The notes beneath the pieces were generated by a model. It saw nothing but the letters and a program-made list of their open reading frames with translations. It had not been told where the DNA came from and did no database searches. DNA of 64,000 bases from Phycisphaerae bacterium (GTDB taxonomy: Bacteria > Planctomycetota > Phycisphaerae > UBA1845 > UTPLA1): positions 558,001 through 622,000 of the forward strand of contig DATEMU010000012.1 in NCBI GenBank assembly GCA_035275405.1. The letters run 5' to 3'. Shown here piece by piece: positions 51,678 through 58,384 of this stretch; position 1 is the first letter of the stretch, and every line of letters starts with the position of its first letter. Made by a program: the position numbers and the translations under genes.

Positions 51678-51845
51678 ATAAAGGAAGACCTCCCCGAACG
51701 CAACCGTTTCGAACTTTGGGAAGCTGCCAAAACGGCAGATTATAGCGGCCGGTCTGTTAACCGCGAGAGCGCGGGTTATGTCTAGCAACGGTTTTCCGCG
51801 CTCTCCAACATGGTTCCGCGGCGGGTATGCGAAGGAGACCCCATC
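51678..51845. other. Region after mlaD with a small hairpin
   Basis: No gene is supported. A hairpin near 51755-51778 pairs TAACCGCG with CGCGGGTTA (one bulged G) around an AGAG loop; it may end the mla transcript but has no T-tract. Confidence 0.45.
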
Positions 51846-51875: not shown

Positions 51876-51881
51876 TGAATC

Positions 51882-51966
51882 GGGTTCCCTTAAGAGAGCC
51901 TCCTTTCTCTACTCTCCGGCCCGAGAGATTGGGAACCCGGCCCCGCCGCAACGGTGGGGCTTTTTT
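51882..51966 (+). ncRNA. Candidate ~85-nt structured small RNA or leader
   Basis: Outer stem CGGGTTCCC (51881-51889) / GGGAACCCG (51931-51939). Inside are two hairpins: AGAGA (51893-51897) / TCTCT (51906-51910) and CTCTC (51912-51916) / GAGAG (51923-51927), together a three-way junction. An intrinsic terminator follows at once. With the promoter upstream this defines a compact transcript. It fits no RNA family I can recall. It may be an independent sRNA or a cis-acting leader of the zinc-ribbon gene 34 bases downstream. Confidence 0.5.
51940..51966 (+). terminator. Strong intrinsic terminator
   Basis: GCCCCGCCG / CGGTGGGGC, a 9-bp stem with one G-T pair, loop CAA, followed by six T. Confidence 0.88.
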
Positions 51967-52000
51967 GTGATCAGTGGGACCGACCATTTACGCACCTTCT

Positions 52001-52319: not shown

Positions 52320-52348
52320 TTGGTAACAGCCAACGAGAATGGTATTAT
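52320..52348 (+). promoter_or_regulatory. Promoter of the TerB-BrxD-BrxHI cassette
   Basis: TTGGTA (52320-52325), 17-base spacer, TATTAT (52343-52348). The longest open frame of the next gene would begin at the TTG of this -35 box, which argues for the ATG at 52428. Confidence 0.65.
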
Positions 52349-52427
52349 TGCTTCTCTCGTCCCTCAAATCGCCCTGTCAAGGGCGAAAGGAGCAGTCGAG
52401 GGCGTCCAAAGTCCAGGATGGGAAGCA

Positions 52428-54782
52428 ATGTGGGTCGTTGCCCTACTTTTGGCGGCGGCGTTAATCGCTGTCGTGGTTGCCGCACGTTCCCAAGGAGTCA
52501 ATCGGCCCTCACGAACAAGTACGCCTGCGTTGCCAAACGCGAGACCGATTCAGCGCCCAGATTCAGTCGTGGCGGATACTGATGTCATGGATTACGCCTT
52601 TGAAATCCGAGTTGGTGCAGCCCATTCGATCAGGGGCGGGTCGCCTGCAGAACTTCGCTGGTTAGGCAAAGGGCAAACTCTTCGCGTGCATGGCCTGGAG
52701 ATCAAGGACCCACTCACGTACACCGGAACGACGGGTGTCGGATTTGAGCCTGCGGACCCGTCGCAGATCGACCCAGTACTCGCCGCAACGCCAGCAACCT
52801 CGGCAATCGACCTTCCATATTGGCCCTGGTTTGCGGCGCTCAACTCAGAACAGCGATGCCTCTACCTAAAGTGGCTGGCCTCCGACCGGCGCTCGCTGCC
52901 TCCGACCGACGGTTACCTTTTCCTTTACTACTACGGTCTCGAACGACGAGTTCTGGTCGACGGGGAGGATAAGGCCCTGGTCTTTGCCGAGGTGTATCGT
53001 CTCCGAAAGATGCATGCGGCTCAATCGCCGCGAAGACCGCGCAACAGCTTTCAGAACTACAGCACAGCCTTCCTGTGGTACATGATCGCCAAGTACAGCA
53101 ATTCGGTCGGTTTTGAGGCAGTGTCCAAGATTGTCAATTCGACGGCTGTTTGGACCGAGGATGCACTCGAGACGGCGTTGGCTTGGTTTGCACTTCGGGC
53201 AGCGCCGTTGCCGTCGTGGATGGCTTATGTCGTGGCCGCGGAATCCGGGCTTTCCCAGCATAGCGTGGTCATTAAGCGGGCCGAAACCCAATTCAACGAG
53301 CTCTTCACCAAGAGATTTGAGACCGAGTTTGGTGACCGTCTGATTCTCAAGGCTTCCAAACGAGACAAGTCCATCACGTATAGGCCCGCCAGCGCCGCTC
53401 TCACCCCGTCGACGGTACGGTTGCCCGGAGTACTAACGGCCAATGCTCAGATTCGACGGCTATCCGCGATCTGGAACGAGTGTGTCGAGGAGCTGCGCCG
53501 CTTCAGTTCAGTGGTTCGCAATGCGCAAGATCAAGATGCACTAACTCCCGCCGCCTGGGAGGCCCTGCCGCCCGACTTACGAAAGGCGACCGAGCATCCC
53601 TTGGCGCAATCCATGTTCGCGTTGGTCGCGAAGCAGACGGACGAAAGCGGACAAGTATTTCTGAAAGTCAGCGACCTTGCTGCGCTCGCCGATTTAGGAT
53701 CGCGACAACGGCTGACCCCGACTCAAAGTCGCAGTCTCGCGTCAATGGCGGAATACGCGGGGTTTGGAATCGAGCCCGACGCGCGCCTGACGGGGAGGGG
53801 CTATTACTGGGAAGAGCCGCTGGCGGTGTTCCCGCAGGCTTATTCGGGGGAGCCCGATCACAGCCGCTATGGCGCTGCGGCCTGCATGCTGAGGTTGGGC
53901 GTGGAGATCGCCGAGGCGGATGGAAAAATCAACGACGGAGAGCTTCATCGCGTAATGGAACAAATTGAGGCCGGATTTGAGTTGAACGATCACGAGCGAC
54001 GGCGCCTCGAGGCCCTTCGATCGTTACTCCTCAAGACAGGTTCGGACGTCGCCGGCCTCGGCAAGCGTCTGCAAAAAGTCATGGGTGAGGAGGCCCGTCG
54101 CAATGTGGGCCGACTTCTCGTGGCGGTCGCTGGAATCGATGGCGTGATCAGTAAGGGCGAGCTGACCGCCTTGCGCCGCTGTTACCGAGCGCTGGGACTC
54201 GGTCCTGACCTTTTGGAAGGGGCCATCGCCGAACTAGCGCCGGAATTGTCGGATGCCCCCGTCGTCGTACAGCGAGGTCGCCGACGTGGGGAGGGTGAGG
54301 CGATCCCAGCGCCGCCGCCCAAGGAGGAAGGAGTCCGGCTCGACCGCAACCGCGTGATGCAGATCATGGCCGAGACGCGGGAGGTAAGCATCCTGCTCGC
54401 CGAGGCCATGCGCCGAGAAGATGACGAAGGCGAGAAGGAATGCGATCAAGGCGGACGCGCTGCCGTGATTGCAGCTACCCCTCAGTCAGTCAGTGCGCCC
54501 GTTGTTGTAGTATCTCCCGCACCGCCGAACCCAGGCGCGGCGGTTCCGACTGGGGATTTGCCAGCGCGATACGCCGCCTTTTTCGAGGTCCTCAGGACAA
54601 GACCAAGTTGGAACAAAGCGGAAGCGGGCAAACTCGCGCGCGAGCATGCACACATGCTGGCAGGGGCCCTCGAAGCCATTAATGACTGGGCCTTTGAGAG
54701 AGTGGGAGTGCCCATTATTAATGAAGACGGCGATTCAGTTAGAATCGACCAGTCGATTCTTAAGGAGGTGACGGTCCCATGA
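52428..54782 (+). CDS. TerB-domain membrane-anchored protein (TerB-N / TerB / TerB-C type)
   Basis: About 784 aa from ATG 52428. An N-terminal helix (MWVVALLLAAALIAVVVAA) anchors it. Residues ~115-330 resemble TerB-N (LPYWPWFAALNSEQRCLYLKWL; GYLFLYYYGLERRVL). A TerB-like acidic helical domain lies at ~500-610 (EIAEADGKINDGELHRVMEQI; GIDGVISKGELTALRRCYRA). The end (~620-784, RNRVMQIMAETREVSILLAEAM) fits TerB-C. TerB proteins bind metal and occur in tellurite/stress and phage-defence contexts. Its stop overlaps the next ATG. Possibly a membrane-associated sensor for the ATPase and helicase. Confidence 0.8.
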   Translation: MWVVALLLAAALIAVVVAARSQGVNRPSRTSTPALPNARPIQRPDSVVADTDVMDYAFEIRVGAAHSIRGGSPAELRWLGKGQTLRVHGLEIKDPLTYTGTTGVGFEPADPSQIDPVLAATPATSAIDLPYWPWFAALNSEQRCLYLKWLASDRRSLPPTDGYLFLYYYGLERRVLVDGEDKALVFAEVYRLRKMHAAQSPRRPRNSFQNYSTAFLWYMIAKYSNSVGFEAVSKIVNSTAVWTEDALETALAWFALRAAPLPSWMAYVVAAESGLSQHSVVIKRAETQFNELFTKRFETEFGDRLILKASKRDKSITYRPASAALTPSTVRLPGVLTANAQIRRLSAIWNECVEELRRFSSVVRNAQDQDALTPAAWEALPPDLRKATEHPLAQSMFALVAKQTDESGQVFLKVSDLAALADLGSRQRLTPTQSRSLASMAEYAGFGIEPDARLTGRGYYWEEPLAVFPQAYSGEPDHSRYGAAACMLRLGVEIAEADGKINDGELHRVMEQIEAGFELNDHERRRLEALRSLLLKTGSDVAGLGKRLQKVMGEEARRNVGRLLVAVAGIDGVISKGELTALRRCYRALGLGPDLLEGAIAELAPELSDAPVVVQRGRRRGEGEAIPAPPPKEEGVRLDRNRVMQIMAETREVSILLAEAMRREDDEGEKECDQGGRAAVIAATPQSVSAPVVVVSPAPPNPGAAVPTGDLPARYAAFFEVLRTRPSWNKAEAGKLAREHAHMLAGALEAINDWAFERVGVPIINEDGDSVRIDQSILKEVTVP

Positions 54783-56131
54783 CTCCACGCGTGACGGAAA
54801 GAGAGCGTTCGGCCATTCTGAGTTCCTTGGGGGCGGGCGTCGTGCCGAGCATTGGCCTGCACCACATTCAGGTCGGCCGCAAAGACGAGGTCGAGGCCAT
54901 GCTGGAGGATCTTCGCCGCATCGCGGAGGGCGGGGCCGGGATACGTTTTATCGTGGGAAGATACGGCGCGGGCAAGAGCTTTTTTCTCAATTTGATCGAG
55001 ACCGTGGCCTTGGAGCGCAAATTCGTCGTCGCCCGCGCGGATATTACGACGCAGCGTCGTTTGCATGGAACAGGGGGGCAAGCGCGCAGCCTCTACAGCG
55101 AACTTATGCGAAACCTGGCAACACGAAGCCGACCGGAAGGCGGCGCTCTTTCGAACCTTGTTGAAAAATGGATCGCCGACCGGGCACACGAAGTCAAAGC
55201 AGGGGGCGGAACCGATGAGCAGGTCGCCCAGCGCGTCCATGAGCTGTGCAAGCCTCTCCAAGAGATGGTCAGCGGATACGATTTTTCAACGGTGCTTGAA
55301 TGCTACTATCGAGGTTTTGTGGAGCACAACGAACAGCTCCAGCAGGCAGCGATTCGCTGGCTTCGCGCCGAGTACACGACGAAGACGGAAGCCCGACAGG
55401 ATCTCGGCGTCCGAACGATCATCGACGATGACTCCTTTTATGATTATTTGAAACTCATGGCGGCGTTCGTGCACATCGCCGGCTATTCGGGGCTTATCGT
55501 CGGAATCGACGAGGTGGTCGTCCTCTCCCATCGCCTCAATAACAAGATCGCCCGCAACAATAACTACGAGGCCGTCTTGCGCATCCTCAACGATACGCTG
55601 CAGGGGTCGGTGCAGAATCTCGGCTTCTTATTCGGAGCAACAGACGATTGCGTCTTTGACCAGCGCCGGGGAATGTATAGCTACGAAGCGCTAAGGACTC
55701 GACTCGCAAATAATCGATTCGCAACGGACGCTCTAGTAGACCTCAATGGCGTTTTGCTCAAGCTCGGCAACTTAACTCCCGAAGATTGTTTTGTACTCCT
55801 TCACAACGTTCGTCGCGTTCACGCCAAGGGAAATGACGGGAAGGCGGCTCTTCCAGATGACGGAATCGTCAAATACCTGGAGGACTGCAATCGCCGAATG
55901 GGCGCGGCCTATTTTCAGACTCCGCGGGAAACCGTGAAGGATTTCGTAGGCCTGTTGAGTATTCTGGAGCAAAATCCGGAGGCCAAATGGGAGGACGTGG
56001 TAGGCAAGATCACGACTTCGTCCGTACAGACACAGGATTCCGCCGTATTGGAGGCGGTAGAAGATAATGAAGAGGCGCCGCCCGCTGCGGTTGCAAAAAC
56101 TGATGACGATCTCGTGAACTTCAAGCTTTAA
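54779..56131 (+). CDS. brxD: BrxD-like P-loop ATPase (DUF2791 family)
   Basis: 450 aa. Walker A FIVGRYGAGKSFFLNLIE near residue 60, Walker B LIVGIDEVVVL near residue 240, sensor region FLFGATDDCVFDQRRGMYSY and an arginine-rich stretch (LRTRLANNRF). The N-terminus (ILSSLGAGVVPSIGLHHIQVG) is typical of BrxD/DUF2791. In BREX type 2 and related loci it is paired with BrxHI. It overlaps the TerB gene by ATGA. Expected to form an AAA+-like NTPase; the precise role is unknown. Confidence 0.87.
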   Translation: MTPRVTERERSAILSSLGAGVVPSIGLHHIQVGRKDEVEAMLEDLRRIAEGGAGIRFIVGRYGAGKSFFLNLIETVALERKFVVARADITTQRRLHGTGGQARSLYSELMRNLATRSRPEGGALSNLVEKWIADRAHEVKAGGGTDEQVAQRVHELCKPLQEMVSGYDFSTVLECYYRGFVEHNEQLQQAAIRWLRAEYTTKTEARQDLGVRTIIDDDSFYDYLKLMAAFVHIAGYSGLIVGIDEVVVLSHRLNNKIARNNNYEAVLRILNDTLQGSVQNLGFLFGATDDCVFDQRRGMYSYEALRTRLANNRFATDALVDLNGVLLKLGNLTPEDCFVLLHNVRRVHAKGNDGKAALPDDGIVKYLEDCNRRMGAAYFQTPRETVKDFVGLLSILEQNPEAKWEDVVGKITTSSVQTQDSAVLEAVEDNEEAPPAAVAKTDDDLVNFKL

Positions 56132-58384
56132 ATGGCCCCTTCTCCCAATTTGCCTGCCGACACTTCTTCGACGGCGATCAGTTCTGCCGCCGCTTTTGAG
56201 TTGTTGAGTCCGGGCGTCAAGCAGCAGCTCTGGCAGATGGGATGGACCGAACTTCGCTCCATCCAAGCGCAGGCTATTCACCACATCCTGGAATCCAGCG
56301 GTCACTGCATCATCGCAGCCGAAACGGCCGGCGGGAAGACGGAGGCGGCGTTCTTGCCGATTCTATCGAACATCGGCGACGAGCCGCCAGGTTCGGTTCG
56401 GGCCATGTACGTCGGGCCTCTGCGAGCCCTGATCAACGACCAATTCCGACGGGTCGAGGACCTCTGCAATCATCTGGAGATGCCAGTGTTTCGTTGGCAC
56501 GGCGACGTGGAGGCCTCCAGCAAGAAAAAACTGCTTCGCGCGCCGGCCGGTATCCTTCTCATCACCCCAGAGTCCCTAGAATCGTTGTTCGTCAATCGAT
56601 CCGGCGAATTGGGAAACCTGTTCGCCGGGCTCCGTTTCGTGGTTATCGATGAGTTGCATGTCTTCCTGGGATCCGAGCGGGGCCTGCATCTCGCCAGCCT
56701 TCTTGCGCGGCTGCGTACCTCGGCAACGGCCGGCAGGCCGGACTTTCGAGTCGTCGGTCTCTCCGCCACGATCGGGGACATGGAGGTGGCGCGACGGTTT
56801 ATTGACCCCGACGCGCCGGAACGTGTGGCGATTATTGAAAGTGACCGGGAAGAGAAGGAATTCCGTTACCGGCTGCATGCCTATCTCAGTCAGGCGGCGG
56901 ACGATCAGGAAACCGAGAAAGAGGCCGACGACGACGCTTTCGATCATGCCGAATATGAAACGATGCGGTTGGTCGCCAACGACCTCGTCGAGCACTGTCG
57001 TGGGTCGAGCAATCTCGTGTTCACCAACGCCAAGGGCGACCTCGAAATCTACGCCGACCTTTGCCGGAGTTTGTCTGAGTCGCAGGGCAGCCCGACGGAG
57101 TTCCTGGTTCACCACGGATCCCTCTCCAAGGAAATCCGCGAAGACACCGAATTGGAGATGAAGAGCGGGCGACCGAGGACCGCACTGTGTTCCAGCACAA
57201 TGGAACTCGGGATCGACATTGGCAGCGTCAAGATGGTCGGCCAGATTGGTCCACCTTGGTCCGTCGCCTCCTTCAAGCAGCGCATCGGCAGGAGCGGCCG
57301 CAAGGACAACGACGCACGGGTCGCAAGGGTTTACATCGTAAACCGGGATTTGGGGGCCAATGCGGAGTTGCTCGACCGCCTGCACCTTGAACTGGTCCAG
57401 GCGATTGCCATCAGTGAACTTCTCTTTGAGGGATGGATCGAGCCGACGGTCGCTCCAAAGCTCGACTTTAGCACACTGACCCATCAAATCATCAGCGTTA
57501 TCGCCGAGACGGGCGGGCTGGCAGCGGCGAAAGTCTTCGACCGACTGTGTAAGGTCGGACCCTTTCGAGCCGTCGAACCGGCCCACTTCGCGCAGGTGCT
57601 GCGCTGTTTGGGGGAAAAAGACATCGTCGAACAGACCGCCGAAGGCGATCTCATCCTCGGGCTCCTGGGCGAGCGATTGCGGGCGGAGAGAGATTTCTAC
57701 GCGTCGTTCGCGACGCCGGAGGAGTTCTCGGTGCTGTACGGCGAGCGACCGATCGGCACCTTGCCGCTACGCATCGTACCCGATGTGGGTGAACACATTA
57801 TATTGGCGGGAAGGCGATGGAAAATCGCCCACGTCGATTTGGAAAAAGGGGAGATCCATGTGGCCCCGGCCAAGGGTAGAAAGCGGCCACTCTTTTTGGG
57901 CGGTCCGGGAGAAATCCACGATCGCGTGCGGCAGACGATGAGGACGATCCTTGCGGACACCAAGTCCTACCCCTACTTGAACCCAACGGGCACTCAGTTC
58001 CTGACGGTCGCTCGCGCCGCCGCCTTGAGCGCCGGCGTGCTGCACACACCTCTCATCGCACCGTCGGACCACGAATGCCTTTGGTTCACTTGGATGGGGA
58101 CGCGCGTCCAGACGACTCTAACCGCTATGCTACGCTTGCAGGGCCTTACGTGCGTGGAACGAGGCGTGGCCATCGACATTCGGCACCCAAGACAGGACGT
58201 GGTTGTCGCCGTCGAATCCCTCATCAAATCATGCCCGGCACCAGCGGCCATCGCCGGCCAGGTCCAACCGAAACAACGCAGGAAATACGATCACTGGTTT
58301 GACGAAGGCCTCCTCAACTCGTCTCTCGCACAAGACGTGCTCGATGTTTCAGGTGCCCTCACAGTTTGCGAAAACTCTAAGTAA
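56132..58384 (+). CDS. brxHI: BrxHI-like superfamily 2 helicase (Lhr type)
   Basis: 750 aa, starting immediately after the brxD stop (TAAATG). Motifs: Q-region WTELRSIQAQAIHHIL, I AAETAGGKTEAAF, Ia YVGPLRALINDQF, II VVIDELHVFLGSERG, III GLSATIGD, IV LVFTNAKGDLE, V LCSSTMELGIDIG and VI SFKQRIGRSGRK. After the RecA domains comes an Lhr-like winged-helix and C-terminal region. DEAH-like DELH box. Likely a nucleic-acid helicase acting with BrxD. Confidence 0.9.
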   Translation: MAPSPNLPADTSSTAISSAAAFELLSPGVKQQLWQMGWTELRSIQAQAIHHILESSGHCIIAAETAGGKTEAAFLPILSNIGDEPPGSVRAMYVGPLRALINDQFRRVEDLCNHLEMPVFRWHGDVEASSKKKLLRAPAGILLITPESLESLFVNRSGELGNLFAGLRFVVIDELHVFLGSERGLHLASLLARLRTSATAGRPDFRVVGLSATIGDMEVARRFIDPDAPERVAIIESDREEKEFRYRLHAYLSQAADDQETEKEADDDAFDHAEYETMRLVANDLVEHCRGSSNLVFTNAKGDLEIYADLCRSLSESQGSPTEFLVHHGSLSKEIREDTELEMKSGRPRTALCSSTMELGIDIGSVKMVGQIGPPWSVASFKQRIGRSGRKDNDARVARVYIVNRDLGANAELLDRLHLELVQAIAISELLFEGWIEPTVAPKLDFSTLTHQIISVIAETGGLAAAKVFDRLCKVGPFRAVEPAHFAQVLRCLGEKDIVEQTAEGDLILGLLGERLRAERDFYASFATPEEFSVLYGERPIGTLPLRIVPDVGEHIILAGRRWKIAHVDLEKGEIHVAPAKGRKRPLFLGGPGEIHDRVRQTMRTILADTKSYPYLNPTGTQFLTVARAAALSAGVLHTPLIAPSDHECLWFTWMGTRVQTTLTAMLRLQGLTCVERGVAIDIRHPRQDVVVAVESLIKSCPAPAAIAGQVQPKQRRKYDHWFDEGLLNSSLAQDVLDVSGALTVCENSK

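What the first reader, a model, noticed from the sequence alone, without database searches (positions are those of the whole stretch)
52320..58384. Compact TerB-BrxD-BrxHI cassette without PglX/PglZ
Seen: three genes with overlapping or abutting ends behind one good promoter: TerB-domain membrane protein, BrxD-like ATPase, Lhr-like helicase. Known: BrxD and BrxHI belong to BREX type 2-like loci; TerB, DUF2791 ATPase and SF2 helicase sets were predicted as stress/defence systems. The methylase and phosphatase that define BREX are absent here, so this may be a free-standing anti-phage or nucleic-acid quality-control system with a membrane sensor.
Basis: partly seen in the sequence, partly recalled or inferred. 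Interest (0 to 1): 0.78.

Follow-up and report, generated by a model that had tools for sequence, protein, structure and literature searches.

The report
Shango anti-phage operon in a planctomycete
The three genes are a complete copy of Shango, a bacterial defence system already shown to protect against phages, so the find is mostly ordinary; the new detail is that a few relatives carry a DNA-cutting exonuclease fused to the helicase, which hints at how Shango may work.

Summary
The window carries three abutting intact genes: a TerB_N-TerB-TerB_C protein with an N-terminal membrane helix, a BrxC/BrxD-type ATPase, and an Lhr-like SF2 helicase. There is no PglX or PglZ. The interpretation 'BREX parts without BREX, possibly a new defence cassette' is overtaken. 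The triad is Shango (SngABC), published in 2022-2023 with phage protection shown in E. coli and P. aeruginosa. Each protein prefers the Shango model over the BREX model: SngB 563 bits vs BrxD 153, SngC 788 vs BrxHI 425. SngC falls in the Shango clade, not the BrxHI clade. The cassette is accessory: none of 16 other genomes of the family has it, and 6 of 114 in the order have it. The same triad occurs in 77 of 80 related loci from many phyla. Corrections: sngA most likely starts at ATG 52428, because the TTG at 52320 is the -35 box of the promoter-like site, and that site is not above chance. Addition: SngC is fused to a complete DEDDh exonuclease in two planctomycetes and, probably independently, in Sphaerisporangium, although the window's copy lacks it. 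Noticed in passing: a structured small-RNA family without an Rfam entry just upstream. Verdict: new member of a known kind.

The parts
52428..54782 (+). sngA: 784 aa, N-terminal TM helix, disordered linker, TerB_N, TerB (metal-site D498/E505/D571/E578), TerB_C ending in a winged-helix-like domain
   Evidence: PADLOC SngA 1.3e-58; Pfam; start by TM position in relatives; model pLDDT 82.5; TerB domain Z 10.1 to 2h5n and C-terminal winged-helix matches up to Z 7.2
54779..56131 (+). sngB: 450 aa BrxC/BrxD-family AAA+ ATPase
   Evidence: PADLOC SngB 9.2e-170 vs BrxD 2.9e-45; Pfam BrxC_BrxD 2.6e-147; Walker A GRYGAGKS, Walker B GIDE
56132..58384 (+). sngC: 750 aa Lhr-like SF2 DEAD/H helicase, no nuclease domain
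   Evidence: PADLOC SngC 3.1e-237 vs BrxHI 1.3e-127; motifs intact; SngC clade in tree; closest solved structures by sequence are bacterial ATP-dependent DNA helicases 5v9x and 7lhl
52320..52348 (+). promoter-like site TTGGTA-17-TATTAT with TG extension; overlaps the TTG that was read as the start codon
   Evidence: only one site against 2.4 expected, so weak

Best explanation
A complete, solitary Shango (SngABC) anti-phage system. Shown here: gene order, domains, intact motifs, membrane helix, accessory distribution, clade membership. Inferred mechanism: SngA is anchored in the inner membrane and reads an infection cue with its metal-binding TerB core and winged-helix end. It recruits or licenses the SngB AAA+ ATPase, which loads or drives the SngC Lhr-type helicase on invading or replicating phage DNA. 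SngC unwinds that DNA so that it cannot be replicated or is handed to a nuclease. The nuclease step is supplied by the host in most Shango loci and by a fused DEDDh exonuclease in a few.
For: PADLOC models for all three proteins. SngC tree separates the Shango clade from the BrxHI-like clade at 98/99 or better, with the window inside Shango. 77 of 80 loci fetched with SngB alone carry all three genes, 76 of them in order A-B-C. Phage protection by the PA14 Shango, a TerB/ATPase/helicase operon (PMC10250203). Published helicase phylogeny puts SngC, BrxHI, DruE and DpdJ in a defence-specific SF2 clade (PMC12278908). TerB acidic residues D498, E505 and E578 invariant and D571 nearly so over 35 sequences. 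TM helix predicted and hydrophobic N-terminal segments in 61 of 87 SngA frames. DEDDh exonuclease fused to SngC in three homologues with all catalytic residues. Carried on many plasmids, 548 of 693 typed conjugative.
Against: The window's SngA is only about 25% identical to proteobacterial SngA, so its sensed cue may differ. Phage protection was shown for E. coli and Pseudomonas copies, not for this one. No nuclease is encoded in the window's cassette. The winged-helix assignment rests on Z 5-7, which is common for such small domains. The published mechanism of Shango is unknown to me, and the library holds no mechanistic paper.
Confidence: 0.93

Rival explanations
1. A degenerate or partial BREX (type 2-like) locus that lost PglX and PglZ but kept BrxD and BrxHI.
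For: SngB and SngC are true homologues of BrxD and BrxHI; Pfam calls SngB 'BrxC_BrxD'.
Against: Shango models win by 410 bits for SngB and 363 bits for SngC. The BrxD equivalog cut-off is failed, 149 vs 350 bits. SngC branches apart from the BrxHI-like clade. No PglZ in the genome. The triad is conserved without BREX elsewhere: 45 of 49 Shango genomes have no PglZ hit above cut-off.
Confidence: 0.02
2. A housekeeping or stress (tellurite/metal, DNA-repair) module that is not a defence system in this organism; TerB senses metal stress and the helicase repairs DNA.
For: TerB domains occur in Ter stress operons (general knowledge); the neighbourhood in this window is not a defence island.
Against: Patchy distribution: 0 of 16 other family genomes and 6 of 114 in the order. 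Relatives place it beside Mrr-NACHT or Mokosh-like defence-type genes, and it rides on plasmids.
Confidence: 0.05
3. Shango limits plasmids or other mobile DNA rather than, or as well as, phages.
For: Helicase/ATPase systems related by function act on plasmids; Shango lies in islands beside the ApsAB antiplasmid system (PMC11096173).
Against: Shango itself is common on conjugative plasmids, and phage protection has been measured.
Confidence: 0.15

Closest known systems
Shango (SngABC), E. coli and P. aeruginosa PA14
   Same: Three-gene order TerB protein - BrxC/D-type ATPase - DEAD/H helicase; PADLOC models match all three; no BREX genes
   Different: Host is a planctomycete; proteins are diverged from proteobacterial ones (SngB about 50%, SngC about 41%, SngA about 25% identity to Aeromonas and Roseobacteraceae copies)
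BREX type 2-like loci (BrxD, BrxHI)
   Same: SngB and SngC are homologues of BrxD and BrxHI
   Different: No PglX, PglZ; TerB protein instead; separate clade and much lower scores
TerB_N/TerB_C conflict and stress operons predicted around Ter domains
   Same: SngA domain architecture
   Different: That was a genomic prediction; Shango is the tested system with this architecture (PMC10250203 cites the prediction)

Membership tests
Shango | SngA-SngB-SngC three-gene operon (TerB protein, ATPase, DEAD/H helicase) | tested here: met
Shango | All three proteins match Shango profiles better than any other defence profile | tested here: met
   SngA 198 bits (only hit), SngB 563 vs BrxD 153, SngC 788 vs BrxHI 425
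Shango | SngC belongs to the SngC clade apart from BrxHI | tested here: met
   split 100/100 from the low-scoring clade; window nested with G029 and G099
Shango | Accessory, mobile distribution | tested here: met
Shango | Protects against phages | not testable with these tools
   shown by others for the PA14 copy
BREX | PglZ phosphatase-family protein | tested here: not met
   none in the genome (96% complete)
BREX | PglX/BrxX methyltransferase | tested here: not met
   best 23.8 bits against cut-off 500, on another contig
BREX | BrxD equivalog score | tested here: not met
   149 vs cut-off 350
Ter tellurite-resistance operon | terZABCDEF genes together | not tested
   none called among the flanking proteins scanned by Pfam; the whole genome was not searched for them

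The most novel reading that the evidence does not exclude
Shango is a helicase-nuclease defence whose destructive step is 3'-5' exonucleolytic DNA degradation. In the two planctomycete homologues G090 and G093 and in Sphaerisporangium melleum the nuclease is built into SngC as a DEDDh domain, and in ordinary Shango such as the window's it is recruited from the host.
Probability: 0.3. Interest if true: 0.55.

Novelty: new member of a known kind. Interest (0 to 1): 0.25.

Why it matters
It settles that the cassette is a published defence system and not a stripped BREX. It extends the record of Shango to a planctomycete order, where it is accessory. The SngC-DEDDh fusions are a concrete, testable hint for the unknown mechanism of Shango: fusion often joins proteins that act together, and these fusions seem to have arisen at least twice.

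Tried and rejected
Partial BREX: rejected. Core syntenic locus: rejected. In five relatives the Mla genes upstream are followed by other genes, with no Shango and no histidine kinase. Mobile-element borders: no tRNA, and no convincing flanking direct or inverted repeats; D5 and D6 are 24-nt, 75% identical pairs of the kind chance gives. GC is only slightly lower than the flanks. Defence island inside the window: no PADLOC defence hit among the eight other large proteins scanned except marginal ones. Solved relatives of SngA and SngB by sequence: none. Foldseek with the whole SngA model gave no match at E <= 0.001; absence of a match is not evidence of a new fold. tblastn of the DEDDh domain against plasmids found nothing. 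In 392 phylum genomes no further long SngC frame was seen among the strong hits, so the fusion is rare.

Full report
OBSERVATION. The three genes exist as described. sngA and sngB overlap by four bases, and sngB and sngC abut. Pfam finds TerB_N, TerB and TerB_C in the first, BrxC_BrxD in the second, DEAD plus Helicase_C in the third. ATPase and helicase motifs are intact. The start of the first gene should be moved. The TTG at 52320 is the -35 hexamer of the promoter-like site 52320-52348, itself not above chance (one found, 2.4 expected). The in-frame ATG at 52428 gives a 784-residue protein that begins directly with its membrane segment, as in the relatives G029, G090 and G093.

IDENTITY. 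PADLOC assigns SngA (1.3e-58), SngB (9.2e-170; BrxD only 2.9e-45) and SngC (3.1e-237; BrxHI 1.3e-127). The NCBIfam BrxD cut-off is failed, 149 vs 350 bits. A maximum-likelihood tree of SngC-like helicases puts the window with G029 (98/94) and G099 (100/99) inside the Shango group, apart from the low-scoring BrxHI-like group. Shango is a published anti-phage system: a TerB-like protein, an ATPase and a DEAD/H helicase from PA14 protected PAO1 against several phages, and the same system had been reported from E. coli (PMC10250203). SngC, BrxHI, DruE and DpdJ form a defence-specific helicase clade (PMC12278908).

BREX TEST. The window's genome has no PglZ and no PglX above generic methyltransferase noise. 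Among 49 other genomes that hold Shango, four have PglZ above cut-off; whether it lies beside Shango in those four was not checked.

DISTRIBUTION. A genome in the same order, G093, matches in contig length and SngC sequence a record titled Phycisphaerae bacterium (L071), so the window is most likely from Planctomycetota. Strong SngC hits occur in G000, G029 and G030 of 61 close genomes and in no other member of the family. Strong SngB hits (E below 1e-150) occur in 6 of 114 genomes of the order. About 12 of 392 genomes of the phylum have Shango-scoring SngC; the remaining hits score like BrxHI. A scan of genome contigs with SngB gave 80 loci from Pseudomonadota, Actinomycetota, Verrucomicrobiota, Cyanobacteria, Myxococcota and others. 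77 hold all three genes, and 76 in the order A-B-C. 693 plasmids encode SngC relatives, and 548 of these are typed conjugative. In five relatives the Mla genes that precede the cassette are followed by other genes. The cassette is therefore accessory. It is solitary in this window, while relatives lie beside an Mrr-NACHT protein (G029) or Mokosh-like and kinase defence-type proteins (Azospirillum plasmid and G099).

ANATOMY OF SngA. The AlphaFold model (35 sequences, mean pLDDT 82.5) has a confident helix at 2-23, a disordered linker, a mixed and then helical TerB_N part, the TerB bundle (Z 10.1 to 2h5n) and a C-terminal winged-helix-like domain (Z up to 7.2, tied with many small winged helices, so only suggestive). 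In the alignment of 35 SngA proteins D498, E505 and E578 of the TerB core are invariant and D571 nearly so. These acidic positions fit the TerB metal site known from the family (general knowledge). A hydrophobic N-terminal segment is found in 61 of 87 SngA frames.

MECHANISM. Shown: the parts. Inferred: SngA tethers the system to the membrane and gates it; SngB loads or powers SngC; SngC unwinds phage DNA. The new hint is that SngC carries a C-terminal exonuclease (PF00929) in G090 (3e-18), G093 (4.3e-19) and Sphaerisporangium melleum (1.3e-15). Exo I (D-E), Exo II (D) and Exo III (H-D) residues are all present, and PADLOC calls the domain DEDDh in G090. The Sphaerisporangium copy sits in another part of the SngC tree and its domain is only 27% identical, so two separate fusions are likely. 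The window's SngC lacks it. I found no paper in the library that mentions this fusion, but the library lacks most subscription journals.

VERDICT. A new member of a known kind. The finding is right in content and wrong in its suggestion of novelty.

Noticed in passing
window 51880-51967 (+), between mlaD and a small zinc-ribbon ORF: Candidate undescribed small RNA: closing stem, two hairpins with the near-invariant core CUACUCUCCGGCCCGAGAG, then an intrinsic terminator; fold z-score -3.55. Four copies in this genome and copies in 12 of 17 genomes of the family; the closing stem (7-14 pairs) has 16 different sequences in 16 copies yet stays paired, though an automatic alignment did not register it. 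No Rfam match near threshold.
   Followed up: partly
L044:9139-12072, L071:11354-14452, L127:11250-14309: SngC fused to a complete DEDDh (RNase_T) exonuclease in two planctomycetes of the order and in Sphaerisporangium melleum.
   Followed up: partly
window 51683-51772: A second dispersed intergenic repeat: copies at G000:C14:22789 (83%) and G000:C4:212838 (78%).
   Followed up: no
L030, L031, L033 (G075, G101, G099): A diverged SngB-like ATPase in frames of about 680 aa (E about 1e-103 to 1e-118), perhaps another system of the BrxC/BrxD kind.
   Followed up: no
L042:15125-17719: An Mrr-nuclease plus NACHT protein, likely a defence gene, upstream of Shango in G029.
   Followed up: no
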